From the NCBI RefSeq assembly GCF_900104925.1, contig NZ_LT629735.1, forward strand, positions 2,140,291 through 2,204,290: 64,000 nucleotides of DNA, given 5' to 3'. Of the stretch, positions 4,955 to 55,810 are shown piece after piece; position 1 is the stretch's first letter, and every line of letters begins with the position of its first letter. The notes below the pieces were generated by a model. That model was given only the letters and a program-made list of their open reading frames with translations, searched no databases and had not been told where the DNA came from. A program made the translations under genes and the position numbers. Origin of the DNA: Opitutus sp. GAS368 (GTDB taxonomy: Bacteria > Verrucomicrobiota > Verrucomicrobiia > Opitutales > Opitutaceae).

Positions 4955-5015
4955 ATGCCGTGATTTCTGAAAATGCCGGGAGGCCTTGGCGAGGAGAATC
5001 GTTGCAGGGGAAAGG

Positions 5016-8433: not shown

Positions 8434-9188
8434 AGCCTTCCCCCTCGTCCAAGGAAATGAATGTCTGCGGCTGGCAGGCGGTGTCGACGCTGTTCGCCCG
8501 CCATCCGGCCGAGGTGCGGCGGCTGTTCTTCGACGCGGCGACCGGCAAGCGGGCGGGGGAATTCTGCTCGCAGCTGGCCGCGCAGAAGAAGGTCTACCGG
8601 CAGGTGGACGCGGCCGAGCTCGACAAGATCGCCGGCAGCAAGCTGCACGGCGGCATCGTGGCGGTCATCGCCGAGCGGCCGCTGCGCAAGGTGACGCGCG
8701 AGGTGCTGGCGGAGTGGGCGCGGGCCAAGGCGCAGTTGCTGCTGCTCGACCGCGTGAGCAACGCCAACAACGTCGGCGCCATTGTGCGGACCGCGGCGTT
8801 CTTCGGCGTGCAGTCGATCATCGTGCCCGATCATCCCGGGCAGGCCGTGCCGGGCGAGGCGGCCTGGCGCGTGGCCGAGGGCGGGATGGAGTTTGTAGAT
8901 TTCTACCGCGTGCCGGCCCTGGCGCCTTTCTGCGCGGAGCTGAAGCGCAGCCATTACCTCGTCGGCACCAGCCTGCGCGGCAACCAACTCTCACCCAGCG
9001 TGGCCCGGGAACGCGGCCTGCCAAAACCGCCGGCGATCATCCTCGGCAACGAGGAACGCGGTATGGCGCCGGAGATCATGACGCAGTGCGACCGGTTGGT
9101 GAAGATCCCCGGCGCCGACACGGTCGAGTCGCTCAACGTCTCCGCGGCGGCCGCGGTCCTCTGCTGGGAATTTTTCGGACCGCACTGA
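8430..9188 (+). CDS. TrmH/SpoU-family RNA 2'-O-ribose methyltransferase
   Basis: This 252-aa protein has a knotted SPOUT methyltransferase fold. The three SpoU motifs are clear: LLLLDRVSNANNVGAIVRTA, IILGNEERGM, and IPGADTVESLNVSAAAAVLC. An N-terminal substrate-binding domain (about 90 residues, VCGWQAVSTLFARHPAEV) resembles that of RlmB-type enzymes. It is read from the ATGA overlap with the RlmM-like gene, so the pair forms a small RNA-modification operon. Whether the target is rRNA or tRNA is not visible. Confidence 0.9.
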   Translation: MKPSPSSKEMNVCGWQAVSTLFARHPAEVRRLFFDAATGKRAGEFCSQLAAQKKVYRQVDAAELDKIAGSKLHGGIVAVIAERPLRKVTREVLAEWARAKAQLLLLDRVSNANNVGAIVRTAAFFGVQSIIVPDHPGQAVPGEAAWRVAEGGMEFVDFYRVPALAPFCAELKRSHYLVGTSLRGNQLSPSVARERGLPKPPAIILGNEERGMAPEIMTQCDRLVKIPGADTVESLNVSAAAAVLCWEFFGPH

Positions 9189-9205
9189 GGCCGCCGCGGA
9201 TCCGG

Positions 9206-10042
9206 TCAGCGCCCGAACAGCTTGCGCAACAAACCGGGGGTTCCTGCGGCCGCGGGCGCCACGGCCGCGTTCATCTCGGGCACACCGAGCAGCGGTTCGT
9301 AGTGGCCGGATTTCTTGTAGAGAATGACCACGTCCTGCGTGCCCCACGCCTCCTCCAAGTAGGCGCGCACGATGATATCGGGGTAGCGCTGCAGGGTGCG
9401 CATGACCCACTCGGGCGAGCTGAGCGCCAGGCCGTAATCCTCCTCGGCGTTGCTGCTGGCGTAGCGCTGGTAGGCGAAACCGGTACGGGCGTATTCCTCG
9501 AGCAGCGCGGGCTTGTCAATGTCCTCGGCCACATGGCGACGGCCGCGCACGAGCAAACTGGAGACATTGCGGCCCTGCGTCGTGAAGACAATGACGCCGA
9601 ATTCGCGCGTCCACTTGACGAGGCAATCGAGCGTGGCCAGCCAGCGATCACGTCGTAGGTGCGTGACGAGGGAGCCGACCCAGATGAGATCGAATTGGGA
9701 TTGGAATGAAAGCTGGCTCAGGTCGGGCTTGGAGTAGATCGGTTTGGTGCCGAACTGGGCGGCGCAGAAATCAACCCCGCCACGGTCAAGATCGCAGGCG
9801 GTGATGTTAGCGTAGCCATAGTGGGCGCGGAGCCAGCGCAGCACGCGGCCGTGACCACAGGGCAGGTCGAGAATGTCAGGGTAGTGCGGTTTGTCGCACA
9901 GCTCTGCGGAGAAGTGAATCAACTCCAGTGCTCGCCGCCCAAGTTCGAAGTATTGCTCGGGGTTTTCCGGTGACACCATGCCGTCGCCGGGTGCAAGGGT
10001 GCGATCAACCGGCAACTGGCTGAAATCGTAAAGAGGAGGCAT
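9206..10042 (-). CDS. Class I SAM-dependent methyltransferase
   Basis: A 278-aa protein with the SAM-binding motif ILDLPCGHGRVLRWLRAHYG and the acidic motif ITACDLDRGGVDFCAAQF. FDLIWVGSLVTHL marks motif II. The last ~50 residues are a variable tail rich in Ala and Pro. Proteins of this layout often sit in polysaccharide or glycan gene clusters, but nothing here identifies the substrate. It converges with the TrmH-family gene and lies 37 bases downstream of kynB on the same strand. Confidence 0.8.
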   Translation of the reverse strand: MPPLYDFSQLPVDRTLAPGDGMVSPENPEQYFELGRRALELIHFSAELCDKPHYPDILDLPCGHGRVLRWLRAHYGYANITACDLDRGGVDFCAAQFGTKPIYSKPDLSQLSFQSQFDLIWVGSLVTHLRRDRWLATLDCLVKWTREFGVIVFTTQGRNVSSLLVRGRRHVAEDIDKPALLEEYARTGFAYQRYASSNAEEDYGLALSSPEWVMRTLQRYPDIIVRAYLEEAWGTQDVVILYKKSGHYEPLLGVPEMNAAVAPAAAGTPGLLRKLFGR

Positions 10043-10079
10043 GGACAGAGCCGGTGTTTAGGTGTCTGACAGATGTGCG

Positions 10080-10703
10080 TCAATCGTGGCCGCGCAGCAC
10101 GGCGCGGAGCGGCGAGCCGTCGCCGCCCTTGATGCGGAGCGGCAGGGCGATCAGTTCGTAGACCCCCGGGGCCACGGCGCGCAGGTCGAGGTTTTCCACG
10201 ATGACCAGCCCGGCGGCATCGCAGGCGTGGTGGATCGGCAGGTCCTTGCTGGTGATCTCGTCCACGGAGGGCACGTCGAAACCGATGAGTGCGACGCTGC
10301 GGGCGGCGAGCCACGCCGGCGTGTCGGCGGACAGCAGCGGCCAGGTGGTGGGGAAGACGGTGGGGTCGGTCCACGAATCGCTCTTGAACAGCACGCGCGG
10401 GGTTGCGGCGAAGTCGTGGGCGGCGAGCAAGGCGGGGGTGATCAGCGTCTGGCCGCGGATGTCCACAACCCGGGCCGGGCCCACGTAGGTGTCGACGGGC
10501 ACCTCGTCGATCTTCCGGCCGGCGTCGTTGTAGTGATACGGCGCGTCGGCGTGGGTGCCGGCGTGCAGGCTGAGGCGCAGCCGGCCGACATTGGCCGCGT
10601 AGCCGGCGGCCTTGGTGTGGGCGAAGGCGAACTCGGCGGGCGTGTCGCCGGGCCAGACGGGCATGTTGGTATAAATCGGGCGGCTGATGTCGTGGAGCTT
10701 CAT
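10080..10703 (-). CDS. kynB: Kynurenine formamidase (cyclase family)
   Basis: This 207-aa cyclase-family hydrolase converts N-formyl-L-kynurenine to L-kynurenine. The metal-binding signature is LSLHAGTHADAPYHY, matching the HxGTHxDxPxH pattern. DISRPIYTNMPVWPGDTP at the N-terminus and LIGFDVPSVD and IHHACDAAGLVIVENLDL further on are typical of KynB. It starts inside the stop codon of kynU (ATGA, 10700-10703), so the two kynurenine-pathway genes are coupled. No tryptophan dioxygenase gene is in the window. Confidence 0.93.
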   Translation of the reverse strand: MKLHDISRPIYTNMPVWPGDTPAEFAFAHTKAAGYAANVGRLRLSLHAGTHADAPYHYNDAGRKIDEVPVDTYVGPARVVDIRGQTLITPALLAAHDFAATPRVLFKSDSWTDPTVFPTTWPLLSADTPAWLAARSVALIGFDVPSVDEITSKDLPIHHACDAAGLVIVENLDLRAVAPGVYELIALPLRIKGGDGSPLRAVLRGHD

Positions 10704-11962
10704 GTGACGAGGGCGCGTTGTGTTGAAAATTTCTCGTGGGCAGCCGTGCGGACAATGGCCTGCAGCTGCGCGATGGCCCCCGCGCAGTCGGCAAAGGTGT
10801 TGTAGAGCGGCGCGGGAGCGAGCCGGATGATGTCGGGCCGGCGGAAGTCCGGCACAACCCCCGCGGCCTTCAGCGCCTGGCAGATCCGCCAGGCCTCGGG
10901 GTGGGCCAGCGCCACGTGGCCGCCGCGTTCGGCCTCGGCCCGCGGGTTGGCGACGGTGAAACCCAGCCCGGCCAGCTCGCGGTCCGCCCGTTCCATCAGG
11001 AAGGAGGTCAGCGCGAGCGACTTGGCGCGCAGGGCGGACACGCCGCCGGCCTCGGCGATGAGCTCGAGCGAACCGAGCAGCGGTGCGACGCTGAGCAGGT
11101 GCGGTGTGCCGATATGCAGGGCCGAGGCATCCGGCGCCGGTTCGTGCTGCGCGACGAGCGCGAAACGCCGGTCGGGACGCACGCCCCACCAGCCGGCGAG
11201 CCCGGGGGCGCGCCCGAGGTGGCGGCGGTTGAAATACAATCCACCGACCGCGCCGGGGCCGGCGTTGAGGTATTTGTAGTGGCACCAGAAGGCGAAGTCC
11301 GCCCCGTCGCGGTCGAGCGTGTGCGGCACGGCGCCGATCGAGTGCGAGCAATCCCAACCGATCAGCACGCCGCGGTCGTGCGCGGCCTTGGTCAGCGCCG
11401 CGAGATCGAGCAATTGCCCGCTGACGAACTGCACGGCCGGCAGCACGGCCAGCTGCACGTCGGGGGTGAACGCCGCGCTGATGTCCTCGGGACGCAGCGT
11501 GCGGCCGTCACGGCTTTTGATGAGCCGCAGGTGCCGGGTCGGGTCGAGCCCGCGCTGGCGCAGATGGCTGTGCAGGGCATGCAGGTCGGAGGAAAAGTTC
11601 AGTTCGTCCGCCAGGATGACCTTTCGCGGTGCGGCGGGGTCGAACAGCGTGGCGAGGAGCTGGTGCAGGTTGGTCGTGGTCGAGCCGGTGACGGCCACCT
11701 CGTCCGGCGCGGCGCCGACAAGCGGGGCGACCGACGCGGCCACGGTCTCGCTGAGGGTGATCCAAGGCGGCGCGGCGTCGGTCCAGCCGCTGATGCCGAG
11801 CGCGCGCCACTCGTCGAGGACACGCTGCACGTGGGCCTCGGCGCGCCGGGACAGCGGCCCGAGCGAATTGCCGTCGAGGTAGATCCGGCCGGGGGGCAGG
11901 AAAAATTCCGCGCGAAACCGGGCGAGGGGGTCGGCTTGGTCCAGGGCGGCGGGGGAACGCAC
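10700..11962 (-). CDS. kynU: Kynureninase
   Basis: A 420-aa PLP-dependent hydrolase that cleaves L-kynurenine to anthranilate and alanine. Recognisable parts are YLDGNSLGPLSRRA, the PLP-phosphate region GSTTTNLHQLL, the WDCSHSIGAVPH aspartate, and the PLP-lysine motif FWCHYKYLNAGPGAVGGLYF. Length matches the family. It is the first gene of a two-gene operon with kynB and is divergent from a FAD oxidoreductase gene 86 bases away, so a shared regulatory region is likely. Confidence 0.95.
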   Translation of the reverse strand: MRSPAALDQADPLARFRAEFFLPPGRIYLDGNSLGPLSRRAEAHVQRVLDEWRALGISGWTDAAPPWITLSETVAASVAPLVGAAPDEVAVTGSTTTNLHQLLATLFDPAAPRKVILADELNFSSDLHALHSHLRQRGLDPTRHLRLIKSRDGRTLRPEDISAAFTPDVQLAVLPAVQFVSGQLLDLAALTKAAHDRGVLIGWDCSHSIGAVPHTLDRDGADFAFWCHYKYLNAGPGAVGGLYFNRRHLGRAPGLAGWWGVRPDRRFALVAQHEPAPDASALHIGTPHLLSVAPLLGSLELIAEAGGVSALRAKSLALTSFLMERADRELAGLGFTVANPRAEAERGGHVALAHPEAWRICQALKAAGVVPDFRRPDIIRLAPAPLYNTFADCAGAIAQLQAIVRTAAHEKFSTQRALVT

Positions 11963-12048
11963 CGCGGGAGGTTCGCAGGAAAGCGTGACGGCGCAAACGC
12001 GAAAGCAAATTGGCTGGCGGGGACCGCCCGGTCCCGCACAATCACGGT

Positions 12049-13185
12049 GTGAACCTCCCCATCTGGGAAGACCGCGACTGGCGGCCGTTGCCGAGGCTGG
12101 AAGGCCCGGTGCGGGCCGACGTGTGCGTCATCGGGCTGGGCGGCTCGGGCTTGGCGGCGCTGGAGGAACTCGGCGCGCTGGGCGTCAGCGCCGTGGGCGT
12201 GGAGGCGGGCGAGGTCGGCGCCGGCGCGGCGGGCCGCAATGGCGGCTTCGTGCTCGCGGGGCTCGCCCGGTTTTTCAACGAGGCCGTCGCCTCGTTCGGC
12301 GAGACGACGGCCCGCGCGCTTTACCGGTCGACCGCCCGGGAGATCCAGCGCCAGACGGAGGAGATGCCGGAGATTGTCCGTCTCACGGGTTCGCTGCGGC
12401 TGGCGGCGGATGCCGCCGAGCGCGCGGAGTGCCAGAAGCACCTCGCGGCGTTGCGCTACTGCGGCTTCGCCGCCGAGCCTTACGCCGGCCCGGAAGGTGA
12501 GGGCATCCTGCTGCCGACGGACGGGGTCATGCAGCCGCTGCGCCGGGTGCGGGCCATCGCGCGGAAACTGCGGCAGCGCGACGCGTTGCTTTACGAGGGC
12601 TCTCCCGTGCGGAAGATCGTCCCCGGCTCGGTCGTGACCGACAAGGGCACGATCTTTTGCGAGACGGTGATCGTGGCCATCGACGGCCGGCTCGAAGGAT
12701 TCTTCCCCGAGCTCAGCCCGCGGGTCCGCACCGCCCGGCTGCAGATGCTGGCGACGGGCCCGGCGCCCGAGGTGAGTTTCACGCGTCCAATCTACTGGCG
12801 GCACGGTTTTGAATACTGGCAGCAGCTGCCCGACCAGGGCATCGCACTCGGCGGATTCCGCGACCGAGGCGGCGAAGGCGAGTGGACGCACTCCACCGAG
12901 CCGACGGAATTGATCCAGGGGTTGCTCGATGACTTCCTGCGCGAACACCTCAAGGTGCGCGCACCGGTCACGCACCGCTGGGCGGCATCGGTGGCCTATA
13001 CGACGGACGGCCTGCCGGTGCTGGAACAGGTGCGCGACCGGGTCTGGGCCGTGGGCGGTTACTGTGGCACGGGCAACATCGTCGGTGCCTTGAGTGCTCG
13101 CGCCGCCGCCCGGCTGGCGTGCGGTCAAACGGCGGAATGGGCCGACTTGCTCGCGGCCGCGCGCACCGCGGCGGCCAAGTCATAA
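12049..13185 (+). CDS. FAD-dependent amine/amino-acid oxidoreductase (DAO family)
   Basis: A protein of about 378 aa from the GTG at 12049 (reads MNLPIWEDRDW); a TTG at 12010 is an alternative. The dinucleotide-binding motif DVCVIGLGGSGLAALEELG is followed by the DAO signature GAGAAGRNGGFVLAGLARF. The C-terminal half carries THRWAASVAYTTDGLPVL and WAVGGYCGTGNIVGA, typical of D-amino-acid dehydrogenase or glycine oxidase relatives. It is divergent from kynUB, so it may take part in amino-acid catabolism, but its substrate is unknown. Confidence 0.82.
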   Translation: MNLPIWEDRDWRPLPRLEGPVRADVCVIGLGGSGLAALEELGALGVSAVGVEAGEVGAGAAGRNGGFVLAGLARFFNEAVASFGETTARALYRSTAREIQRQTEEMPEIVRLTGSLRLAADAAERAECQKHLAALRYCGFAAEPYAGPEGEGILLPTDGVMQPLRRVRAIARKLRQRDALLYEGSPVRKIVPGSVVTDKGTIFCETVIVAIDGRLEGFFPELSPRVRTARLQMLATGPAPEVSFTRPIYWRHGFEYWQQLPDQGIALGGFRDRGGEGEWTHSTEPTELIQGLLDDFLREHLKVRAPVTHRWAASVAYTTDGLPVLEQVRDRVWAVGGYCGTGNIVGALSARAAARLACGQTAEWADLLAAARTAAAKS

Positions 13186-43874: not shown

Positions 43875-44780
43875 TTAAACGGCGGCGAGCATCAGCAGCT
43901 GGCGCAGGCGCTGCGGGTCGATAGCCGAGGTTTTCGCGACGAAGCCGCGCTGGTGGGCGAAGTGGACGTCCGATTCCGCCTTGATGCGGGTGAAGTCGAG
44001 GCGCGGGTGATCGCGATGCTTGGACAGTCCATAGCCGCCGCTGCGGCGATCGGGTGCGATGACGGCGACGACGCGGTCATCCAAGCCTTGCTCCTGCACA
44101 TAGCGGTCGAGTCCGGCCGAGGGATCCTCCGGCAGGGGATCCGTGCGCGGCAGAAAGACGACGAGGGGGCCCGGGGCGGAAACCTGAGAGGTGACGGCTG
44201 AGAATTGAACGTCGCCCGGCGCATCCAGCGACCAGATCTGGGCGTGCTGACCGATAAAGGTGAGCCGCGCGCGAAGGTTGCGCAGGTAGTCGAATAGGTC
44301 AGTCCCCACCAGGCGCATGATTTCCCAGAGCGGTTCGCCGGGCGAAAGTTGCTTCGCGGCGGCGAAACGGCGCAGCAACGCACCATCGATGGGCGAGTTC
44401 AACTGGTCAATGACCTTGCGTTCGACGCCGAGCCAGCGAGCGGTGACGTTGGGGCCACGGCAGTCGAACCACTCGGCGAATTCAAGCCAGTCGCAGAACG
44501 CCCGGGCATCCGCGTAGAGCCCGAGGTGCTGGAGCACGAGGGAGAGGGCGCAGGTCGGCGCCGCGTCGTCCGGGAGTTGGTGATGGTCGAAATTATTCAG
44601 CGCCGGCTCGTGGCGATGGCCCACGTCGACCACCGCGATGGCGGGGTCGGCCAGGTCGGCCTCGGTCGGCTCGCGCCGTAGGATGGGACCGGTGGTGGTG
44701 GCCAGCAGCACGCAGCAGGCGAGGAACTCGTCTTTGTGGGCGCTGCCCGGATGCGTCAGGATCGTGGTGAAAGGCGTCAT
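43875..44780 (-). CDS. MYG1 family protein (DHH-like predicted nuclease)
   Basis: A 301-aa protein of the MYG1/UPF0160 family, related to DHH phosphoesterases. MTPFTTILTHPGSAHKDEFLAC and VVDVGHRHEPALNNFDHHQ carry the DHH-like metal ligands (HPGSAHKDE, D, DHH). The human relative is a 3'-5' RNA exonuclease. The bacterial function is not well defined. It has normal length and is a single gene. Confidence 0.85.
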   Translation of the reverse strand: MTPFTTILTHPGSAHKDEFLACCVLLATTTGPILRREPTEADLADPAIAVVDVGHRHEPALNNFDHHQLPDDAAPTCALSLVLQHLGLYADARAFCDWLEFAEWFDCRGPNVTARWLGVERKVIDQLNSPIDGALLRRFAAAKQLSPGEPLWEIMRLVGTDLFDYLRNLRARLTFIGQHAQIWSLDAPGDVQFSAVTSQVSAPGPLVVFLPRTDPLPEDPSAGLDRYVQEQGLDDRVVAVIAPDRRSGGYGLSKHRDHPRLDFTRIKAESDVHFAHQRGFVAKTSAIDPQRLRQLLMLAAV

Positions 44781-44976
44781 TCGATCCCACCCCAGCACAC
44801 CCGCCCGTCAAAAGCCATGCGGCAGATTGAAAGCGAGGAGCTTGGAGCCGGGGGCAGGGAGACCCAACGCAAGGGCGCGAAGGCGCGAAGAAAGAAGTTG
44901 GCGGGAACGGCGGATTGAGGTTGGTTGGCTGTGGGCCGACGTGCGCTGCCGTTTGCAGCGCGAAAACGATCCGCCC

Positions 44977-45541
44977 ATGAGTTCGCCCCAGTCCGATCCC
45001 CTGTCCGGCCGCATCCTCACGATCCGCGGTCAGCGTGTCATCATCGATGCCGACTTGGCGCGGCTGTATGGCACAACGACCAAGCGCTTCAACGAGGCGT
45101 TCAAGCGCAACATCGCGCGCTTTCCGAAGGATTTCTATTTTCAGCTAACGCTTGAGGAGTTCGTGGCTTTGAAATCACAAATTGTGATATCAAAGCCGGG
45201 AGTCGTTGGAGGTAAGGCCAAAGCCGATATGTGGTCGCAAATTGCGACCACATCCAAGCCGCAACGCCGCCGCCTGAGCAACCGTCCCTGGGTATTCACC
45301 GAGCATGGCGCAGTGATGGCGCAAATATTCTGCACAGCCCGAAGGCCGTGGCGATGAGCGTATACGTTGTCCGTGCCTTTGTGCAGATGAGGGAGGAGTT
45401 GATGACCGGCGCGGTGATCATGAGACGGTTGGCGGAGATCGATAAGAAGCTGGTCACGCACGACGTGATTCTGCGGGACATCTTCGAGAAGCTAGAGGCG
45501 GCGATTGGGCGAGCCGCTAAGCTCTATATTGTTCGTCACTG
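44977..45541 (+). pseudogene. ORF6N-domain DNA-binding protein, frameshifted
   Basis: The N-terminal ORF6N/KilA-N-like domain is intact: MSSPQSDPLSGRILTIRGQR, then VIIDADLARLYGTTTKRFNEAFKRNIARFPKDFYFQLT and WVFTEHGAVMA. Near 45320 the reading shifts: frame 1 continues QIFCTARRPWR and stops at 45357, while frame 3 continues NILHSPKAVAMSVYVVRAFVQMREELM...KLVTHDVILRDIF, the expected C-terminal part. One missing base after ATGGCG would explain it. ORF6N proteins are common near mobile DNA. A sequencing error cannot be excluded. Confidence 0.75.
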
Positions 45542-45912
45542 ACTTTCTCCAGCCAGTCGACGGCTTTGCCGTCGAGGGATTCTTGGATGGCGATGTGGGT
45601 CATGGCGGTGGTGGGGGCGGCGCCGTGCCAGTGTTTTTCGCCGGGGGCGAAGCAGACGACGTCGCCGGGGCAGATTTCCTCGATGGGGCCGCCTTCGCGC
45701 TGGGCGCGGCCGCAGCCGGCGGTGACGATCAGGGTCTGGCCAAGCGGATGCGTGTGCCAGGCGGTGCGCGCGCCGGGCTCAAAGGTGACGGCGTTGCCGG
45801 CCGTCCGGGCCGGAGGCGTGACTTGGAACAACGGGTCTAGGCGGACCGTGCCGGTGAACCAGTCGGCCGGGCCTGGGGTGGAGGGTTGGGAACCGGCGCG
45901 TTTGATTTGCAT
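45517..45912 (-). CDS. Cupin-domain protein
   Basis: A 131-aa small cupin of the carboxymuconolactone-decarboxylase-associated type. The metal-binding motifs are [23 protein letters not shown] (GxxxxWHxHxxGQ) and [18 protein letters not shown]. Relatives include manganese (R)-mandelonitrile lyases and other small enzymes. Its 3' end overlaps the tail of the ORF6N pseudogene by about 25 bases on the opposite strand. Confidence 0.9.
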
Positions 45913-46038: not shown

Positions 46039-47340
<1,302 letters not shown>

Positions 47341-47358: not shown

Positions 47359-47368
47359 GAGTATCGCT
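47359..47368. other. Left half of the split target palindrome and 5-bp duplication
   Basis: GAGTATCGCT at the outer left edge of the element. TCGCT (47364-47368) recurs at 54061-54065. Joining the flanks restores arms GGAGTATCGCT and AGCGATACTCC around one C. Confidence 0.75.
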
Positions 47369-47473
47369 TGCCAGCTGACAATAATGTCGGGTCGTTCACA
47401 TGCGCGTAAGTGATTGATGAGTCGTGATACCTCCCATTGAAGTCGAGTTGTTCCCCTGCCATTAAAGTTGAGC
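47369..47473. repeat. Left terminal repeat region of the element
   Basis: TGCCAGCTGACAATAATGTC, then degenerate copies TGATTGATGAGTCGTG, CCCATTGAAGTCGAG and GCCATTAAAGTTGAG. Read inversely, this matches the order and spacing at the right end. Bases 47474-47669 hold nothing else I can recognise except the presumed gajA promoter. Confidence 0.7.
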
Positions 47474-47669
47474 CACTAGAAACACAGAGTTCTCAAAAGC
47501 AGGGTGTGGGAGTGCCTGCACGGACCATTCGGGCTTTGCCTCGTGGCTGCGGCCGTCTACAGTCGCTCTTCGGGCCAAAATAGTTTGAATCGTAATTCGA
47601 CTACCTCTCAGAGACCCCTGCTGCCCGACCTGACGGAAGGGACGCCAGTTGTTCCTGCGCTCCTTCCGC

Positions 47670-49577
47670 ATGCACCTGCTACAGATCTCCGTTAAAAACT
47701 TTCGCTGCCTAAAAGAAGTTACAATTACGCTCTCTAGCGGGTTGAACGTCCTCGTTGGCGAGAACAACATCGGCAAAACGGCGATTCTCGACGCGATCCG
47801 CGCCGCACTCGGTCCGGCGGCTAGCACCGGCGAGCCGCTGAAAATCGGGCCCGATGACCGTCACCGCCAGTCCGACGGCGCCTATCTCAACGAGGCGATC
47901 CAGATTTCGCTCGTGTTCGCGAACCTGTCGGCGGACGAGCAGGCGCAGTTCATCGACATCTTGAATTACAATGCAGCGGAACCGGCCAAATCCACGGCGC
48001 AACTGAATTTCCGCTGGCACTGGAACGAGAAGACCAAGCACTACTCGATCAACCGCTGGGGCGGAACGGCGGCATTCTCCGAAAACGCCATTCCCGAGGA
48101 CGTGCTGCAAATGTTGCCAGTCACGTTGCTCGGGGCACTGCGGGATGCGACCGCGGCGCTGCAACCCGGCCGCAACAGTCGGTTAGCGCACTTGCTTGAA
48201 GCGAGAGCGAACGACGTGGACAAGGCGGCCATTGTTGAGTTCGGCAAGACGACAAACGAGGCGTTGGAAAAAAATGATCTGGTCAGCAAGACTCAGGAGC
48301 ACATCACGAAGACCCTCGGCCAGGTGACGGGAAAGGTCTTCGCGCAAAAGACCGCTATCAAGACTTCGCCGCCCGAGTTCGAGAAGATCATCCAGGGCTT
48401 GCGCCTTGTCGTATCCCGCCTGCTGCCGGGAAACGTCGAGATCACTGACGAACTCCGCGCAAACGGGCTCGGTTTCAATAATCTCTTTTATATCGCAACC
48501 GTCATCCTTGAACTGAATGCGCAGACCAACGCGTTGCTGCCGCTGCTGCTGGTCGAGGAACCTGAGGCGCATTTGCATCCTCAGCTGCAGACGCTGCTGG
48601 CGGATTTTCTCGCTGACCCCAAGGAGTTGCACCCTGTGAAGGTGCAGTCCCTCATCACCTCCCATTCCCCGACAATCGCCGCGCATGTGCCGCCGGAACG
48701 GCTGCGGGTGCTGCATATGACGAAAGACCGCAAGTTGCATTGCGCGTCATTCGATGCGTGTGGCTTGACCGTGCCACAATTGGCGCAGGTTCGCCGGATG
48801 CTGGATGTGACACGTGCATCGCTGCTCTTCTCTCGCGGGGTGATTCTGGTAGAAGGAATCACTGAGGCTCTCTTGCTTCCTGTGCTCGCCCGTCGCGCCG
48901 GCACGAATTTAGAGGAGAACGGCATCTCCGTCGTGCCGGTTTGCGGCGTGGATTTCGGAACCATCGCCGCACTTTTCGACGGGAAAGGTCTCCAGATCCC
49001 GCTCGCCCTCGTAACCGACGGCGATCCGGGCACCGAAGACGACACCGAGCAGGCAGAACCGGTTGGCGAAGCTGCGGCCGCCGCCGCGCTGGGGGAGCCC
49101 GCAGAAGTGCCGTGGCACCAGCGGGAACCCCGGCGTGATCCCGCGGGCGTTTTGATCGTATGTGCCCGAGTCGTGAAGCTGAAGGAGACTTACGCAGGCA
49201 AGCCGCTCGTTGGCGTGTTTCATTCTGACGTTACTTTGGAATACAGTCTGGCCAAGGCCGACACCCATAATCCCCAAGTCATCTGCGACACCTGGACTTC
49301 ACTCTTTGCCGGCCAGCCGCGAACGTTTAACCAGGCGAAACTGGATGCGTGCGGCGGGAACCACGACCTTCAGGCCTTGGCGATATGGCGCGGTATTTGC
49401 CAAGCCAAGACCACCCGCACGAAGGCGGAATTCGCGCAGGCCCTGGCGACCAGGCTCGACCAGAAGCACCCTGACGGCACCTACGTTGTCGCACCTGACG
49501 CCTTCGTCATTCCGCCCTACCTAACCGCAGCCTTCACCCATGTCCTCACCGCCCCAGCCGCCGAAGGAGCCCACTGA
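47670..49577 (+). CDS. gajA: Gabija defence nuclease GajA (OLD-family ATPase-TOPRIM)
   Basis: A 635-aa protein starting MHLLQISVKNFRCLKEVTI (ATG 47670; TTG 47649 is an alternative). The ABC-type ATPase part has Walker A VGENNIGKTAILDAI near residue 30. Signature/Walker B parts are LLLVEEPEAHLHPQLQTLL and SLITSHSPTIAAHVP. The C-terminal TOPRIM nuclease shows ILVEGITEALLLPVLARR (Glu ~395) and ALVTDGDPG (Asp ~449-451). OLD nuclease next to a UvrD-like helicase is the Gabija anti-phage pair; GajA nicks DNA when nucleotides are depleted. The protein is somewhat longer than the ~580-aa reference. Its end overlaps gajB by 38 bases. Confidence 0.87.
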   Translation: MHLLQISVKNFRCLKEVTITLSSGLNVLVGENNIGKTAILDAIRAALGPAASTGEPLKIGPDDRHRQSDGAYLNEAIQISLVFANLSADEQAQFIDILNYNAAEPAKSTAQLNFRWHWNEKTKHYSINRWGGTAAFSENAIPEDVLQMLPVTLLGALRDATAALQPGRNSRLAHLLEARANDVDKAAIVEFGKTTNEALEKNDLVSKTQEHITKTLGQVTGKVFAQKTAIKTSPPEFEKIIQGLRLVVSRLLPGNVEITDELRANGLGFNNLFYIATVILELNAQTNALLPLLLVEEPEAHLHPQLQTLLADFLADPKELHPVKVQSLITSHSPTIAAHVPPERLRVLHMTKDRKLHCASFDACGLTVPQLAQVRRMLDVTRASLLFSRGVILVEGITEALLLPVLARRAGTNLEENGISVVPVCGVDFGTIAALFDGKGLQIPLALVTDGDPGTEDDTEQAEPVGEAAAAAALGEPAEVPWHQREPRRDPAGVLIVCARVVKLKETYAGKPLVGVFHSDVTLEYSLAKADTHNPQVICDTWTSLFAGQPRTFNQAKLDACGGNHDLQALAIWRGICQAKTTRTKAEFAQALATRLDQKHPDGTYVVAPDAFVIPPYLTAAFTHVLTAPAAEGAH

Positions 49578-51321
49578 GGAACAGAACGCGGTGCTGATCT
49601 CACCCGCACGCGTTCGCGTGGTCCGCGCCTGTCCCGGCGCGGGCAAGACGGAGATGTTCGTCGAAGCGATTCGGCGGGAGCTGAAGTCGTGGAACAAGCC
49701 GGCCGGAGGCGTCGCGGCGCTTTCTTTTACAAATGTCGCCCGCCAGACGATTGAGGCCCGGGTCGGCGGCGTCGTGGGCGCCCCGCATTTCATCGGGACG
49801 CTCGATGGGTTCGCGTTTCGTTTTGTGGTGAAGCCTTTTGGCCATCTCGTGGGGTTACCGGCCGGAGGCGTGCGCCTGTTTCCCGCGGCCATGTGCGCCC
49901 AGTTCACGCAGCCGACCGTGCAGGTCGGAGGCCAGCCCAAGGAGCGAGCCACGCTGTTCCAGGTTCATTTTTCCGGCGTCGAGAAGAAGCTTCCGGTCCT
50001 CCGGGCCGAGGCCGCGTATCGTCAAATCACCGTTCCCGCGGAGAGGGTCCAGGAAATATTTGACGCGAAGAAGAACTACTGGGCCAAGACCGGAATCGTG
50101 ACCCATTCCGACTGTCATTTTCTCGCCGCGGCGATTCTCAAAAAAGGTGGCGCGGCGGTCCGAGGGCTAATTGCCCGGCGATTTCCCGTCATCTTCATCG
50201 ACGAACTTCAGGACACCGGATTCTTCCTCGCCCGAACCTTCGTCAGGCTATGTGAGGATCCCGGAATCAAAGCACTGGTTGTTGGTGATCCTAACCAGGC
50301 TATCTATGGATTCGGCGGCGCGAGCCCCACGATTTTTGACGATTTCCAAGCACTGGAGGGGGCGACGCCATTTGCGCTCACGCTGTCGCAGCGGTGCCCC
50401 AAGAAGGTTTCTCAGGTTGTGTCCGCTCTGAGTTATTCTAAGGCCCCGGTTAACGCCCGGCCCGATGCGGCCGACGGCGAACTGGCGCTGGTGGTGCACT
50501 CGCTCGCGATACCGAAACTGCTGCCGCCACAGGCGGCATTCTTGCGCGGCTTGGGTGTCGGAACTAGTCTGGCGATCATTAGCCGGCGGACAACGACCGC
50601 CAATTCGCTTCGTGGCGCCATCATTCGCGACGAGTTCTGTGGCCGTTCCGGCGTGGCGCGAAAGATCAACCTCGCGGCGGAATACCTGGCCAATGGCGAC
50701 CCGGCTACTGCGGTCACCATCATCGACCGGGAGTTGTGTCGGGTCGTGTTCGACGATCCCCAGGCGGGGCTCGAAGAACGAAAGGGGAAGGGTATCACTC
50801 CGGCGCAATGGCGGGCCGCCATCTTCGGGATTCTGACTGCGGCCCTCGCGAAGGTGGAGGGTGAGACGTGGAACGCCTGGGTTCAGCGCATCAAGGCTGC
50901 GGTCCAAGCGGCATGTGTATCGCTGGGCTGGCAGCTCAACGAGACCAGTGGCCTGAAAGCCTACATGATTTGCAACGAAACTGGCAACGCTCCGCGAAAC
51001 CAGCTGATCGAGATCCCCGTCGCCCCATTGTGGCCGGTAGGCGATACCGTCAGCACCATCCATAAGGTCAAAGGGGCGGAGTTCGAGACCGTCATCGTTT
51101 TCGCGCCGAAGCCCTCTAAGGGGCATCCGTGTCCCGCCAAGGAATGGTGGTCGGACGAAGCGCAGGGTGAGGAGCGGCGGGTGGGGTTTGTCGGTGTTTC
51201 CCGGGCCAAACAAAAGCTCATCTTGTGCGTGCACGTCTCAACGCTGAAGGAATTGCAGGCGAAGCAACCTGAATTTGTCGCCCTGTTCGGCGAGCCCATC
51301 CCCATGCCGGCGGGCGCGTAA
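49540..51321 (+). CDS. gajB: Gabija defence helicase GajB (UvrD/REP-like)
   Basis: A 593-aa superfamily-1 helicase. Motif I is VVRACPGAGKTEMFVEAI, motif Ia ALSFTNVARQTIEARV, motif II VIFIDELQDTG, motif III VVGDPNQAIYGFGGA, motif IV LSQRCPKKVSQVV, and motif V-like VSTIHKVKGAEFETVIVFAP. The C-terminus has VGVSRAKQKLILCVH (motif VI). It starts within gajA (38-base overlap), so the two are translationally coupled. In Gabija, GajB activates or assists GajA. It is longer than the ~494-aa reference. Confidence 0.87.
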   Translation: MSSPPQPPKEPTEEQNAVLISPARVRVVRACPGAGKTEMFVEAIRRELKSWNKPAGGVAALSFTNVARQTIEARVGGVVGAPHFIGTLDGFAFRFVVKPFGHLVGLPAGGVRLFPAAMCAQFTQPTVQVGGQPKERATLFQVHFSGVEKKLPVLRAEAAYRQITVPAERVQEIFDAKKNYWAKTGIVTHSDCHFLAAAILKKGGAAVRGLIARRFPVIFIDELQDTGFFLARTFVRLCEDPGIKALVVGDPNQAIYGFGGASPTIFDDFQALEGATPFALTLSQRCPKKVSQVVSALSYSKAPVNARPDAADGELALVVHSLAIPKLLPPQAAFLRGLGVGTSLAIISRRTTTANSLRGAIIRDEFCGRSGVARKINLAAEYLANGDPATAVTIIDRELCRVVFDDPQAGLEERKGKGITPAQWRAAIFGILTAALAKVEGETWNAWVQRIKAAVQAACVSLGWQLNETSGLKAYMICNETGNAPRNQLIEIPVAPLWPVGDTVSTIHKVKGAEFETVIVFAPKPSKGHPCPAKEWWSDEAQGEERRVGFVGVSRAKQKLILCVHVSTLKELQAKQPEFVALFGEPIPMPAGA

Positions 51322-51330
51322 CCCTTTGCC

Positions 51331-52200
51331 ATGAATTTCGGGACCAATCCTCCGCTTTCTCACGGCTCGTTCGAAACGTCGGCCCTCATCATGCCTGCGG
51401 ATATTGGGACGATCAAGCCGCTGCACCAATTCGGTCCGTCGACCGTCTACGTGCACGGCGCCGTCATGTCGTTTGTCGGCTATCGGGGCATTCAGGTCTC
51501 TCGCGTTTCACTGAAGGAAATGTGTCATGCCCAGTATGACTGCGCCATTCTTGTAACATATGTTCCCCGCAGGAAACGAAAGGAAAGTTCTTACATCGAG
51601 ACCAGCCACGCTTCGACTGTCATTGTCGAGGGCTGGATCGACGAGCCGCTGCCCGCTCCCCACGATGCCACGGGTGCGGCGCGTCACATGGGTTTCGACA
51701 AAGAGTGGGACCGCGAGTTTGGATTGTGGCTCGATACGATGTGCCGGCGGTCGGAGTGTAAGATCTTGTCCGACCTGCGGGGGCACGATGCCCGGGCTCG
51801 CAAGCCAGGTCCACCCGCACCGTCTCAGCCACCTGGACAACCGCCACCGGCTGGGCCGGCAGCACTGGCGAAACCCGTCCTGCGCTTCGTCGAGGGAGCG
51901 GCGACCGAAATTGTGCAGACGCGCTACGAGCGTGACCCGGCAGCCCGGGCCTCGTGTCTCGCGCATTATGGGTTCGTTTGCCAGGTGTGTGGCTTTGATT
52001 TCGAGCGACGCTTCGGGGAGTTGGGCGCCGGTTTCATCCATGTGCATCACCTCGAGCAACTCGCCGTCACGGCCCAGGAACATACGGTCGATCCGATCAG
52101 GGACCTGAGGCCCGTCTGTCCGAATTGTCACGCGATGCTGCACCGCCGCAATCCGCCCCTGACGCCAGACGAATTGCGCGCGTTGATGCGCCTGAATTGA
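51331..52200 (+). CDS. HNH endonuclease-domain protein, third gene of the defence operon
   Basis: A 289-aa protein starting 9 bases after gajB. The C-terminal ~100 residues are a zinc-stabilised HNH domain: YGFVCQVCGFDFERRFGELGAGFIHVHHLEQLA, then DPIRDLRPVCPNCHAMLHRRNPP, with two CxxC pairs and the H-H-N/H catalytic residues. The N-terminal ~150 residues (FGPSTVYVHGAVMSFVGYRGIQVSRV) form an unrecognised, probably sensory or DNA-binding, domain, followed by a Pro-rich linker. Tight spacing with gajAB suggests a functional extension of Gabija. Confidence 0.82.
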   Translation: MNFGTNPPLSHGSFETSALIMPADIGTIKPLHQFGPSTVYVHGAVMSFVGYRGIQVSRVSLKEMCHAQYDCAILVTYVPRRKRKESSYIETSHASTVIVEGWIDEPLPAPHDATGAARHMGFDKEWDREFGLWLDTMCRRSECKILSDLRGHDARARKPGPPAPSQPPGQPPPAGPAALAKPVLRFVEGAATEIVQTRYERDPAARASCLAHYGFVCQVCGFDFERRFGELGAGFIHVHHLEQLAVTAQEHTVDPIRDLRPVCPNCHAMLHRRNPPLTPDELRALMRLN

Positions 52201-52487
52201 TCCTCAAATCGCTCGGAAAAATTCCACCGGGATGGCAGGCGTTCTCCGTTCAAGGGCGTGGGAGCTGGCGGGACAAGCGAAACAGCTGCCGAGGTCACCT
52301 GCGCACCGGATCGTGTCTTACCCGTAGTGCACTAACCGGGATCCCGGATCCTGCTCTAGGTGAAGGTCAGGTATTGTGCGCAGTTTCGTGAGCCGCAATA
52401 CGGCGACCTCATTTCACCCTCCGTGTAGGTCGAGCATAACCAGTCTTGGTTTCGAAACCACCGGACCCCTGTTCTGGCCCGTCGGCG

Positions 52488-53252
52488 CTAAAGTTCGACG
52501 ACAAGGTCAGGGCGGAAACCGGCGCACTCGGGGCCTGCCGAAGCGAGGTAGCCAAACGCGTTGTTCAGCACCCTAGTTTTTCCGATGATGTAATCGCGGC
52601 ATTCGTGAATATGCCCATGAACCCACAACGCCGGGCCTCGCTCGCAAATGAGTTCATCCATGTTCGAGACATACGCTGCGCTGATGGGGTCCAATTCCTT
52701 TCCGGTCTGGGCGGACTTGGGCGAAGGAGCGTGGTGAGTGATGACCACAGAGTGCGCGGGATCCCCTGCTGTTAGGAATTGATTGAGGGCCAGACGTGTG
52801 TCGGCATGGAGAAGCGCGGTGTGCTTGGGCTGCAGTCGGCTGGTGTCTTGACGGCGAATTTTCCGGTAGTCATTCATGCCAGTTCCTTTTGAGCCGGCCA
52901 TAAGCATGGCGGTTGGTCGGTCGCCCAAAAGGTCGAAGTCGGTCCACAGAGTGGCGCCGAAAAAGCGGTAACCCTTCAACTCGTAGGTTTCGTTTTCGAG
53001 GATGATGACGTTCGAACCCGTTGCGGCTTCTCGTAGCTTTTCGTGCAGTCGACCAATACGCTCATCGTAGTGCTCATGATTACCCGCGATGTAGAGAATG
53101 GGGTTATCGGGAAATCTTTGCCTTGCCCAAGCGACGCCCTTCACGCCGCGATCGATGTCGCCAGCGAGGACCACGACGTCCGCGGCGGCGTCCGGTAGAT
53201 CAACGGATCCGAATTCCCGATGGAGATCGCTGAGGACACGAATTCTCATCAA
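52488..53252 (-). CDS. Calcineurin-like metallophosphoesterase
   Basis: A 254-aa phosphoesterase, starting MMRIRVLSDLHREFG. The five metal motifs are visible: SDLHREF, VVLAGDIDRG, IAGNHEHYD, VVITHHAPSPK and ALWVHGHIHECRDY. Such proteins act on nucleotides, cyclic nucleotides or DNA. It converges with the HNH gene inside the element; the 287-base gap between them holds nothing I recognise. It may be a further defence or regulatory component. Confidence 0.85.
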   Translation of the reverse strand: MMRIRVLSDLHREFGSVDLPDAAADVVVLAGDIDRGVKGVAWARQRFPDNPILYIAGNHEHYDERIGRLHEKLREAATGSNVIILENETYELKGYRFFGATLWTDFDLLGDRPTAMLMAGSKGTGMNDYRKIRRQDTSRLQPKHTALLHADTRLALNQFLTAGDPAHSVVITHHAPSPKSAQTGKELDPISAAYVSNMDELICERGPALWVHGHIHECRDYIIGKTRVLNNAFGYLASAGPECAGFRPDLVVEL

Positions 53253-53302
53253 TGAGCAAACCCTGCAGGTCTAGCCGACCTAATCAAGAAATCCGTCGCC
53301 CT

Positions 53303-53557
53303 TTAGATGTGGCGGAAGCACTCAAAGTTGGCAGGCGCTGAGTTAGCCAGCCGGACCATTTGGTCATTTTTTTCCATAGGAAATCCCAGACCACCCGCAG
53401 CGGTGAGCACTTCTTGGATTCGAACCGCTCGCGCTTTCGGCGCGGTGGCGGCCAACAAGCGCGTCAAGTAGCTGGCACCTTTGAGTTGCTTGCGCTCCAC
53501 GGTCAGAAAGTGGAGGGCGGCGAAACCATTGCCAACGATGTCGATCACCTTGATCAC
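53303..53557 (-). CDS. Small hypothetical protein, 84 aa
   Basis: It reads MIKVIDIVGNGFAALHFLTVERKQL, SYLTRLLAATAPKARAVRIQEVLTAAGG and FPMEKNDQMVRLANSAPANFECFRHI. It was not recognised. It lies upstream of the metallophosphoesterase on the same strand, with 50 bases between, and could be an antitoxin-like partner or a fragment. Confidence 0.4.
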   Translation of the reverse strand: MIKVIDIVGNGFAALHFLTVERKQLKGASYLTRLLAATAPKARAVRIQEVLTAAGGLGFPMEKNDQMVRLANSAPANFECFRHI

Positions 53558-53742
53558 CCAGGGAGCGACGGCAGCCCCTTCAAACTGGAAAACGGGGAAC
53601 AGGTACGAGAGCCTTGGGCACGCGTCGGGCTGCCGGAACTATGCCCTTACGCTCAAATGTGGAGAACTTGGGGACTGGAGGGTCGAACGCCTCGGCGGCT
53701 GAGCGGAGACAATCATTCGATCGGGTAGGCTATCTACAAAAA

Positions 53743-53769
53743 GAAGGCCGCAGGGTTGCTGCGGCCTTC
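53743..53769. terminator. Hairpin GAAGGCCGCAG/CTGCGGCCTTC
   Basis: An 11-bp perfect stem with a 5-base loop in the right part of the element. It shares the GGCCGCAG stem core with the hairpin at 53915-53944. The left side follows AAAAA, so it could terminate a minus-strand transcript. Between 53558 and 53742 no convincing gene was found. Confidence 0.55.
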
Positions 53770-53914
53770 GCTCGACGATTAAACAGGATTAAAAGGCGGG
53801 GAAACGGGATTAAAGGCGGCAAACACCACTAAAGGCTTCGACCACAAGCAACCGGACAAGGAAGCTACCTCGCAAGATAACACGCAAATAACGAACGTTT
53901 TGTTGGGTAAAAGA

Positions 53915-53944
53915 TTGGCCGCAGGAACAAAATCCTGCGGCCAA
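53915..53944. other. Hairpin TTGGCCGCAGGA/TCCTGCGGCCAA
   Basis: A 12-bp perfect stem with loop ACAAAA, just inside the right-end repeat array of the element. Confidence 0.65.
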
Positions 53945-53946
53945 AT

Positions 53947-54060
53947 GGCGACCCGACTTTAATGTTCAGGCGACCCGACTTTAATGTTCAGGCGACTCGA
54001 CTTTAATGGGAGCTAACCACGACATTAATGTCTGCGTCCCGACATTAATGTCAGCTGGCA
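53947..54060. repeat. Right terminal repeat array of the element
   Basis: Two exact 22-bp direct repeats start at 53947 and 53969 (GGCGACCCGACTTTAATGTT, then CA), followed by a third (GGCGACTCGACTTTAATGGG). Then come CCACGACATTAATGTC and CCCGACATTAATGTCAGCTG, the latter forming the terminus. The spacing of about 22 bases suits transposase binding. Before this array, 53775-53880 has AT-richer spaced copies of GGATTAAAGGCGG. Confidence 0.8.
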
Positions 54061-54064
54061 TCGC

Positions 54065-55810
54065 TCAGCGATACTCCTCGTTCGTGTTCGCGTTGATGAT
54101 TTTGAAGTTTTCGACGTGATAATTCGGATCAGCCCTAAAGGCCAGTTTGATGCCGAAGGTCTTCTCGATGCGGACGAGCAGCTCGGAGTCCTCGACGCGG
54201 AGGCGTTCGAGGATCGAGGGGTGCACGTGGACGCGGAGCGAGTATTCCTTGCCGTCCTTCCGGGCCTGCAGGCGGCGGGCGACCGAGGACAGCTTGCGCT
54301 GCAACTCGACCGACATTGTCGTGGCCGATTTCACCACCGCGCGGCCGCGGCAGTAGGGGCAGCTGGTGTAGAGGTTGGCCGAGAGCGACTCCTGCTGGCG
54401 CTGGCGGGTCATCTGCATGATGCCGAGCGACGAGATGGGCAGGATGTGCGTCTTGGCCTTGTCCTCCGACATGAGCTCGACCATGCGGTCGTAGACGGCG
54501 TTGCGGTGGCGCCGCTCCTTCATGTCGATGAAGTCCATGATCACGAGGCCGCCGATGTTGCGCAGCCGGATCTGGCGCGAGATCTCCGTGGCCGCCTCCA
54601 TGTTGACCTGGAAGATGGTGTTCTTCTCGTCGCCGGAGCGGCTCTTGTGGGAGCCGGTGTTGACGTCGATGGAGATGAGGGCCTCGGTCTCGTCGATCAC
54701 GATCTCGCCGCCGGAAGGCAGGGGCACGCGGCGCTGGAAGGTCTGCTCGATCTGGCGCTCGATGTTGTAACGCTCGAAGACCGGGATGGAGTCCTTGTAG
54801 TAGACGATCTTGCCCTTGGAGCGGCTGGAGATCTGGCCGACGTATTCCTGGGTGCGCTTGAAGTCGTCCTCGTTGTCCACGAGCACGCGGTCGATGTCCT
54901 CGGTGAGGAAGTCGCGGACGGTGCGCTCGACGATGTCGGGCTCCTGGTAGAGGCAGGCGGGGGCGCGGTCGGTCTCCATCTTGCGCTGGATCTCCGTCCA
55001 CTTGGTGAGGAGGAGGTGCAGGTCGCGGACGAAGTAACGCGGCTTCTTGCCCTCGCCGGCGGTGCGGACGATGACGCCCATGCCCTCGGGGATGGTGAGC
55101 TCGTTGATGAGGGTCTTGAGGCGCTTGCGCTCGAGGGGATCCTCGATTTTGCGGGAGATGCCGCAGCCGTCGGAGAACGGCGTGAGGATGAGGTAGCGGC
55201 CGGGGAGGGACAGATTCGTCGTGGTGCGCGGGCCCTTGGTGCCGATCGGGCCCTTGGTCACCTGGATGACGATGTCGGTGCCCGGCGGGTAGAGGCCGGG
55301 GATGTCCTTGACGGTCGGCTCGGCCTTGCGCGGGCCGGCGTCCTTCTTCTTGTTGACGCGGACGACCTCGACGGAGGAGTCGGCGGCGGCGGGGAGCATG
55401 TCCCAGTAATGGAGGAAGGCGTTCTTGTTGTAGCCGATGTCGACGAAGGCGGCCTTGAGGCCGGGGTCGAGGTTCTTGATGCGGCCCTTGTAGATGCCGC
55501 CGACCATGCGGTTGTCGGAATCGCGCTCGATCTCGAAGCGGTCGAGGGTGCCGTCCACGAGCAGCGCGACGCGCTTCTCGAGGGGCTCGGAGTTGATGAC
55601 GAGTTCGCGGAAGGTGCCCTTTTCCTTCCGGAAAATGCTCAGGATTTTCTGGAGGATGGGCCGGTCGGCGGCGCGTTCCTTGGATTGCTGCCGGAGTTGG
55701 TCGGCAGTGAGAGGCTCGCTGTGCTTCTGCGGCGGGGGTTGGGCGAGTTCCTCTTCATGGTGTGAGGCGGCGTCCGAAGGGGCGCCGGAGTTGGTGGGCT
55801 GGTCGTTCAT
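54065..55810 (-). CDS. rng: Ribonuclease E/G
   Basis: A 581-aa endoribonuclease of RNA processing and decay, start [13 protein letters not shown]. Residues ~1-75 are low-complexity. The S1 domain is [35 protein letters not shown]. The catalytic Asp region shows in [10 protein letters not shown] and [15 protein letters not shown], and the Zn-link CPYCRGRAV is present (CPxCxG). The RNase-H-like and small domains finish the protein. It has no long C-terminal degradosome scaffold. The gene ends at the transposon border, which follows the stop codon directly. Confidence 0.94.

What the first reader, a model, noticed from the sequence alone, without database searches (positions are those of the whole stretch)
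47670..52200. Gabija pair with a tightly linked third gene encoding an HNH protein
gajA and gajB overlap by 38 bases and the HNH gene follows after 9 bases. The standard Gabija system has two genes. The HNH protein has an unrecognised ~150-aa N-terminal domain and could be an added effector or a restriction component. GajA and GajB are both longer than the reference proteins.
Basis: partly seen in the sequence, partly recalled or inferred. Interest (0 to 1): 0.66.

Follow-up and report, generated by a model that had tools for sequence, protein, structure and literature searches.

The report
Gabija cassette on transposase-less Tn7-like element
A known two-gene bacterial antivirus system (Gabija) sits next to a DNA-cutting gene with an unfamiliar front half, and both lie inside a small mobile element that lacks its own moving machinery, so the third gene is more likely a fellow passenger than a new part of Gabija.

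Summary
In detail: gajA (47673-49577), gajB (49540-51321, 38-base overlap) and an HNH gene (51331-52200, 9 bases later) are intact and co-directional. "Gabija with a third component" is only partly supported. The HNH domain is a widespread module behind many different N-terminal domains; 0 of 44 loci bearing it carry gajA or gajB, and 0 of 24 other gajA loci carry it next to gajB. Residues 1-165 have no convincing relative anywhere searched. GajA and GajB lengths are ordinary. Another genus-mate has a related end there, with TniQ/TnsD-, TniB- and TnsA-like genes and other defence cargo; the window's genome has no TniQ or TnsB-type match. Best reading: a tns-less Tn7-like element carrying Gabija and an independent sensor-HNH nuclease, probably co-transcribed. 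Gabija as Tn7-like cargo is already in print; the orphan domain, the missing tns genes and the rne site are less familiar.

The parts
47364..47368 (.). 5-bp target-site duplication, left copy (TCGCT)
   Evidence: the empty site in G271 has one copy
47369..54060 (.). tns-less element with Tn7-like ends, 6,692 bp
   Evidence: TIR + TSD + subterminal repeats + empty site
47369..47401 (.). left terminal inverted repeat (outer 12 nt perfect: TGCCAGCTGACA)
   Evidence: I1
47434..47470 (-). left-end subterminal repeats (two copies)
   Evidence: (I4, I5, I7)
47673..49577 (+). gajA (OLD-family ATPase-Toprim nuclease)
49540..51321 (+). gajB (UvrD-like), overlaps gajA by 38 bases
51331..52200 (+). HNH gene, 289 aa
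51331..51825 (+). orphan N-terminal domain (residues 1-165, includes start of a Pro-rich linker)
   Evidence: no convincing relative
51883..52197 (+). promiscuous HNH module (about residues 185-289)
52488..53252 (-). metallophosphoesterase gene (PF00149; PADLOC candidate PDC-S10), convergent with the HNH gene
53947..54054 (+). right-end subterminal repeats (five CGACWTTAATGT-type copies, 20-22 nt apart)
   Evidence: (D2)
54028..54060 (.). right terminal inverted repeat
   Evidence: I1
54061..54065 (.). target-site duplication, right copy; overlaps the last base of the rne/rng stop codon
54065..55891 (-). host ribonuclease E/G gene whose 3' end is the insertion site
   Evidence: sequence; family name recalled, no family search run on it; conserved in 18 of 21 genus genomes, own included

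Best explanation
A 6.7-kb element with Tn7-like ends and no tns genes inserted at the stop codon of rne/rng. Its cargo is a standard Gabija pair, a separate single-gene nuclease and a metallophosphoesterase. GajA and GajB should form the usual nucleotide-sensing nicking complex (established for Gabija; inferred here from intact motifs). The HNH protein most likely works on its own as a sensor-nuclease of the McrA/EVE-HNH type: its unrecognised N-terminal ~150 residues recognise some feature of invading DNA (possibly a modified base), a Pro-rich linker follows, and the C-terminal HNH domain cuts. It probably shares the gajAB transcript because it lies 9 bases behind gajB, not because Gabija needs it. 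Shown: genes, motifs, element boundaries, target duplication, empty site, module promiscuity, absence of the pairing elsewhere in the sets examined. Inferred: co-transcription, sensing, independence, and past mobilisation by tns proteins of a related element.
For: HNH module: matches in 31 of 387 phylum genomes (own included); apart from self no match starts before query residue 150, and in 24 viral-contig loci none starts before residue 132. The N-terminal parts of 38 of these relatives were read (17, 21) and are of many kinds; none of 50 compared resembles residues 1-165. Closest named relatives by sequence are modification- or phosphorothioate-dependent restriction enzymes: EcoKMcrA-type 6ghc 5.7e-4, PADLOC mREase_IV 1.6e-5, NCBIfam PT-DNA_restrict 3.5e-4, far under its cut-off. 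No pairing: 0 of 44 HNH loci with gajA/B, 0 of 24 gajA loci with adjacent HNH. Tight linkage is not diagnostic: in Rhizobium sp. NXC24 a DUF4238 gene overlaps gajB by 14 bases, and it is absent behind the similarly arranged gajAB of A. fabrum C58. Element: 12-nt perfect TIRs flanked by a 5-nt direct repeat, found in 0 of 500 shuffles; empty site in G271; related right end at the same site in G400 (76% over 75 nt, 7e-6), whose contig carries two TniQ/TnsD, a TniB-like AAA and a TnsA-like gene and defence-type cargo. GC3 of the four cargo genes 0.64-0.74 against 0.93 for rne.
Against: A 9-base gap in a three-gene run is also what a functional operon would show, and the three genes lie in one element. 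The GajA relatives compared are only 24-35% identical (rows), so a recent lineage-specific third subunit would have been missed. OLD-family ATPase plus HNH is a real functional pairing in Septu/retron I-A (PtuA-PtuB; recalled). Modified-base recognition by the N-terminal domain is untested; its structure could not be predicted (blocks of pLDDT about 25-55). The TnsB candidate of G400 has no Pfam match and its TnsA match is under the curated cut-off, so these names rest partly on gene order.
Confidence: 0.64

Rival explanations
1. The HNH protein is a genuine third subunit or added effector of this Gabija system: GajA (or the GajAB complex) controls an HNH nuclease, in the way the PtuA ATPase works with the HNH protein PtuB in Septu and retron I-A.
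For: Tight gene order with a 9-base gap; the three genes lie in one mobile unit; GajA is distantly related to PtuA (8ee4 3.2e-9, 9n69 1e-8); the weak Foldseek list of the HNH model includes CBASS Cap5 effectors and the retron I-A HNH.
Against: 0 of 24 gajA loci with the HNH adjacent, 0 of 44 HNH-module loci with gajA/B; no PtuB family hit in PADLOC at E<=0.1; the module normally ends a self-contained sensor-nuclease; all Foldseek matches have E>0.01 and TM about 0.2 by query.
Confidence: 0.2
2. Two separate systems kept together by selection because they complement each other: the HNH protein guards against phages that escape Gabija, for example with modified DNA (a stronger form of the best explanation).
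For: Sensor-HNH architecture and McrA/PT-type best matches; the related element in G400 also stacks several defence-type genes.
Against: Only one locus has the pair, so selection for the pairing is not shown; no substrate known.
Confidence: 0.3
3. The boundary structure is an insertion-sequence (IS21-like) cassette, not Tn7-like.
For: My first guess from the look of the repeats (recalled, not tested).
Against: G400 has TniQ/TnsD, TniB-like and TnsA-like genes in the same contig and a related right end at the same gene; the 5-bp duplication and arrays of 20-22-nt subterminal repeats fit Tn7-like ends.
Confidence: 0.06

Closest known systems
Gabija (GajA-GajB)
   Same: Near whole-length PADLOC GajA and GajB matches, intact motifs, gene order, lengths within the range of relatives
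   Different: A tightly linked HNH gene follows; not seen next to gajB in 24 other gajA loci
Sensor-HNH modification-dependent restriction enzymes (EcoKMcrA, ScoMcrA, VcaM4I, TagI)
   Same: N-terminal domain + linker + C-terminal HNH; EcoKMcrA-type 6ghc is the only PDB sequence match, mostly at the HNH domain; VcaM4I has N-domain 1-147, linker 148-178, HNH 179-309 (PMC7897488, passages)
   Different: N-terminal domain matches no SRA, EVE, PUA or NEco model; modification dependence untested
Tn7-like transposons with defence cargo (PMC8649781, passages)
   Same: TIRs, subterminal repeat arrays, 5-bp duplication, insertion just past a conserved gene, defence cargo; Gabija is listed there as Tn7-like cargo (338 OLD nucleases)
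   Different: No tns genes in the element, no TniQ or TnsB-type match in the genome; insertion at rne/rng
Septu / retron I-A (PtuA ATPase + PtuB HNH)
   Same: OLD-like ATPase gene near an HNH gene
   Different: GajA is a full OLD-type protein with Toprim and has GajB; no PtuB profile match

Membership tests
Gabija | GajA: ABC-type ATPase plus Toprim (OLD family) | tested here: met
   PDLC00071 2.5e-148, PF13175, PF20469; motifs at 29, 391, 446
Gabija | GajB: UvrD-like protein encoded directly after gajA | tested here: met
   PDLC00129 5.7e-61; PDB GajB 9.8e-18
Gabija | GajA-GajB complex, nucleotide-regulated DNA nicking, phage protection | not testable with these tools
   reported for the studied Gabija proteins (PMC8136825 seen in a listing; PMC10681800 abstract)
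Gabija | two-gene system without HNH partner | tested here: inconclusive
   this locus has a linked HNH gene; 24 other loci have none next to gajB
Sensor-HNH (type IV-like) restriction enzyme | C-terminal HNH with zinc Cys and catalytic His/Asn intact | tested here: met
   C217 C220 H239 H240 C263 N265 C266 H267 H271 conserved in 96-98% of 52 rows; HNH part of the model mostly above pLDDT 90
Sensor-HNH (type IV-like) restriction enzyme | N-terminal modified-base reader (SRA/EVE/NEco) | tested here: inconclusive
   no profile match, no confident model
Sensor-HNH (type IV-like) restriction enzyme | cleavage only of modified DNA | not testable with these tools
   needs an assay
Septu PtuAB | HNH partner of the PtuB family | tested here: not met
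   no PtuB hit at E<=0.1 in PADLOC
Tn7-like transposon | TIRs with arrays of ~20-22-nt subterminal repeats | tested here: met
Tn7-like transposon | 5-bp target-site duplication at a fixed site | tested here: met
   TCGCT/TCGCT and a single copy in G271; ends of other elements at the same gene in G400, G390 and G357
Tn7-like transposon | tnsABC and tniQ/tnsD genes | tested here: not met
   none in the window, no TniQ or TnsB-type match in the genome; so it is filed as a tns-less element with Tn7-like ends, not as an autonomous Tn7-like transposon

The most novel reading that the evidence does not exclude
A three-gene Gabija variant: the orphan N-terminal domain docks the HNH nuclease onto the GajAB complex (or senses its product, such as nicked phage DNA), turning a nicking system into one that makes double-strand breaks, and the whole unit spreads as a tns-less Tn7-like element that borrows tns proteins and targets rne/rng.
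Probability: 0.14. Interest if true: 0.75.

Novelty: new variant of a known kind. Interest (0 to 1): 0.42.

Why it matters
If the HNH protein is independent, the locus adds an unrecognised putative sensor domain to the sensor-HNH nucleases and shows how close spacing can mislead operon-based discovery of defence subunits. The element shows that defence cassettes can sit in tns-less elements of under 7 kb with Tn7-like ends at the rne/rng 3' end, a site where three other species of the genus also show such ends, so searches that start from transposase genes would miss them. If it is a real third subunit, it would link Gabija to the ATPase-plus-HNH logic of Septu.

Tried and rejected
IS21-like ends: considered from the look of the repeats, dropped after the tns-type genes in G400.

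Homologues of the N-terminal domain: plasmids at E<=1 gave only short matches in a phosphate transporter (5 records); viral contigs and genome-contig scans none (these pattern scans find close relatives only); 384 class genomes gave, besides self, 13 genomes with partial matches at E 0.005-0.09, several across stops, taken as chance; PHROG 24737 at 0.05 taken as chance; PDB none at E<=10. The phage collection was searched with the whole protein only.

The genome-contig scan with GajA found nothing, so no close named relative of this GajA is known to me. Structure of the HNH protein: single sequence pLDDT 36; with 17 relatives only the HNH part is confident, mean 57; Foldseek gave no match at E<=0.001.

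Other copies of the ends or an autonomous partner in the own genome: none. G400-type TnsD in 315 class genomes (G400 not among those listed): 1 match, in G271, 25% identical and far from rne. G400's left end lies beyond its contig, so its boundaries and duplication are not shown; no left end was found for G390 either.

Literature: no paper on a Gabija-HNH pair was recognised in the listings (20 of 26 rows shown; 15 rows shown); the term 'GajC' gave only unrelated papers in the 8 rows shown; 'rnase' in PMC8649781 occurs only for the transposase fold and 'ribonuclease' only for toxins, and neither occurs in PMC10293859 (main texts); searches gave no match recognised for this arrangement. Supplements were not readable. 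I make no claim that the rne site or such tns-less elements are unpublished beyond these searches.

Full report
Observation. The three genes are as described. gajA runs from ATG 47673 (a TTG at 47649 is possible) to 49577, gajB 49540-51321, and the HNH gene 51331-52200; the overlap is 38 bases and the gap 9 bases. PADLOC, Pfam and PDB sequence searches identify GajA and GajB, and the ATPase, Toprim and helicase motifs are intact. The remark about length is true against the solved proteins (578 and 494 aa chains), but 18 annotated plasmid pairs have GajA of 577-730 and GajB of 571-639 aa (from coordinates), so 634 and 593 aa are ordinary.

The HNH protein. Pfam sees only HNH at 217-273. Of 387 genomes of the phylum, 31 (own included) have a match, and no match other than self starts before residue 150. 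201 plasmid records, 7 phage records and 24 viral-contig loci match, in the rows shown only over the C-terminal part (40 of 201 plasmid rows were shown). The N-terminal parts of 38 relatives were read (17, 21): the shared part begins around residue 185 with an EGA..V.VN.YER.P.AR motif and the proteins differ in front of it. The zinc and catalytic residues C217, C220, H239, H240, C263, N265, C266, H267 and H271 are conserved in 96-98% of 52 rows. The nearest named families are restriction enzymes that read modified DNA: EcoKMcrA-type, PADLOC mREase_IV, NCBIfam PT-DNA_restrict (under its cut-off). This matches the architecture of known sensor-HNH enzymes; VcaM4I has an N-domain, a linker and an HNH domain of similar sizes (PMC7897488, passages).

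The N-terminal domain is an orphan. Residues 1-165 gave nothing convincing in plasmids, viral contigs, genome contigs, 384 class genomes, Pfam, PADLOC, NCBIfam, PHROGs or the PDB, nor against the N-terminal parts of 50 other HNH proteins. The codon-position GC pattern in this part (0.56, 0.46, 0.70) resembles that of the neighbouring genes, so it looks coding. Its fold could not be predicted.

Is it part of Gabija? I looked from both sides. Of 24 other gajA loci (18 on plasmid records, 6 in genomes of the phylum), gajB was found in 23 (the contig of L055 ends inside gajA; L058 and L059 end about 0.25 and 0.6 kb after gajB). An HNH-module relative is within the fetched flank in 1 of 24 (Granulicella, L051, about 1 kb after gajB and behind a recombinase gene), never directly after gajB; the N-terminal domain is in 0 of 24. 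Two further plasmid loci have an annotated HNH gene upstream of gajA (L172, L174) that the module profile did not match. Of 44 loci fetched for the HNH module (24 viral, 20 genomic; 3.2-14.5 kb each), 0 have gajA or gajB. The 20 genomic ones are the top 20 of the 36 non-self places listed. A tight third gene is also not diagnostic: in Rhizobium sp. NXC24 a DUF4238 gene overlaps gajB by 14 bases and is absent behind gajB of A. fabrum C58. Against this, all relatives are distant and a recent addition would be missed.

The element. The repeat search showed an inverted pair at 47369-47401 and 54028-54060 that brackets the three genes and a convergent metallophosphoesterase gene. The outer 12 nt are perfect and are flanked by TCGCT on both sides; in 500 shuffles of the two intergenic stretches 14 had a 12-nt inverted pair and 0 had one with a flanking 5-nt direct repeat. 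The right end has five CGACWTTAATGT-type repeats 20-22 nt apart, the left end fewer. The same-genus genome G271 has the uninterrupted site with one TCGCT. The site is the stop codon of the RNase E/G gene; the left flank carries a terminator-like hairpin (47293-47316, minus strand), and in G271 a similar hairpin sits next to rne (read by eye), so the element seems to have separated the gene from its terminator without touching the frame. The element is 6,692 bp; its four genes have GC3 of 0.64-0.74 against 0.93 for rne.

Why Tn7-like. In the same-genus genome G400 the rne site carries a related right end (76% over 75 nt, E 7e-6), and the same contig holds two TniQ/TnsD proteins, a TniB-like AAA protein, a 769-aa protein in the TnsB position without a Pfam match and a protein with a sub-cut-off TnsA match, followed by defence-type cargo (PLD-SNF2 helicase, type IIG-like protein, SMC-like ATPase, DUF5131). 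G390 has four ATTAATGTC repeats at the same place. G357 has a 4,113-bp element with 26-nt perfect TIRs, a TAAAC duplication, four 23-nt subterminal repeats, and two unassigned genes (no Pfam or PADLOC match), with no TniQ or G400-TnsB match in its genome. So of 11 other genus sites with readable flank (L079-L088 and L090; L078 begins at the site and L097 did not match the motif), 3 have such repeat arrays. In the window and in its genome no tns gene was found: no tblastn similarity in the window to the G400 proteins, no TnsB-type match in the genome (4 of 21 genus genomes have one) and no TniQ (4 of 21 have one). The element is therefore non-autonomous in this genome, as far as these searches reach.

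Reading. Gabija is already known as Tn7-like cargo (PMC8649781, passages). The simplest account is that gajAB, the HNH gene and the phosphoesterase gene are separate defence passengers; the HNH gene lies 9 bases behind gajB and is likely co-expressed. The alternative, an HNH subunit that works with GajA as PtuB does with PtuA, is possible (p about 0.2) and easy to test by deleting the HNH gene in a laboratory host.

Noticed in passing
L094 (G357) 8511-12623: A second tns-less element with Tn7-like ends at the rne 3' end: 26-nt perfect TIRs, TAAAC duplication, four 23-nt subterminal repeats, two ORFs (9737-11284, 11220-12365) with no Pfam or PADLOC match; candidate unknown defence cargo.
   Followed up: partly
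L098 (G392) 2836-2876 and 4973-5013; L091 (G075) 10225-10705: Direct repeats of about 26-41 nt copying the rne 3' end upstream of rne, as integrases can leave; the rne 3' end may be a hotspot for more than one kind of element.
   Followed up: no
L089/L111 (G400 contig C63): Tn7-like contig with PLD-SNF2 helicase, 1,371-aa type IIG-like protein, SMC-like ATPase, an unassigned 663-aa protein and DUF5131 / PDC-M41A-like genes as cargo.
   Followed up: partly
window 52488-53252 (-): Metallophosphoesterase in the same element, matching PADLOC candidate defence family PDC-S10 (2.8e-14); could be another defence gene.
   Followed up: partly
window 44638-45542 (+): An ORF6N-like protein (name recalled, no search run) appears split over two frames (44638-45357 and 45231-45542), perhaps a frameshifted gene.
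   Followed up: no
window 47044-47154: Run of 7-nt CCTGAGA units inside the start of the 385-aa aldo/keto reductase frame; the true start is probably downstream of it.
   Followed up: no
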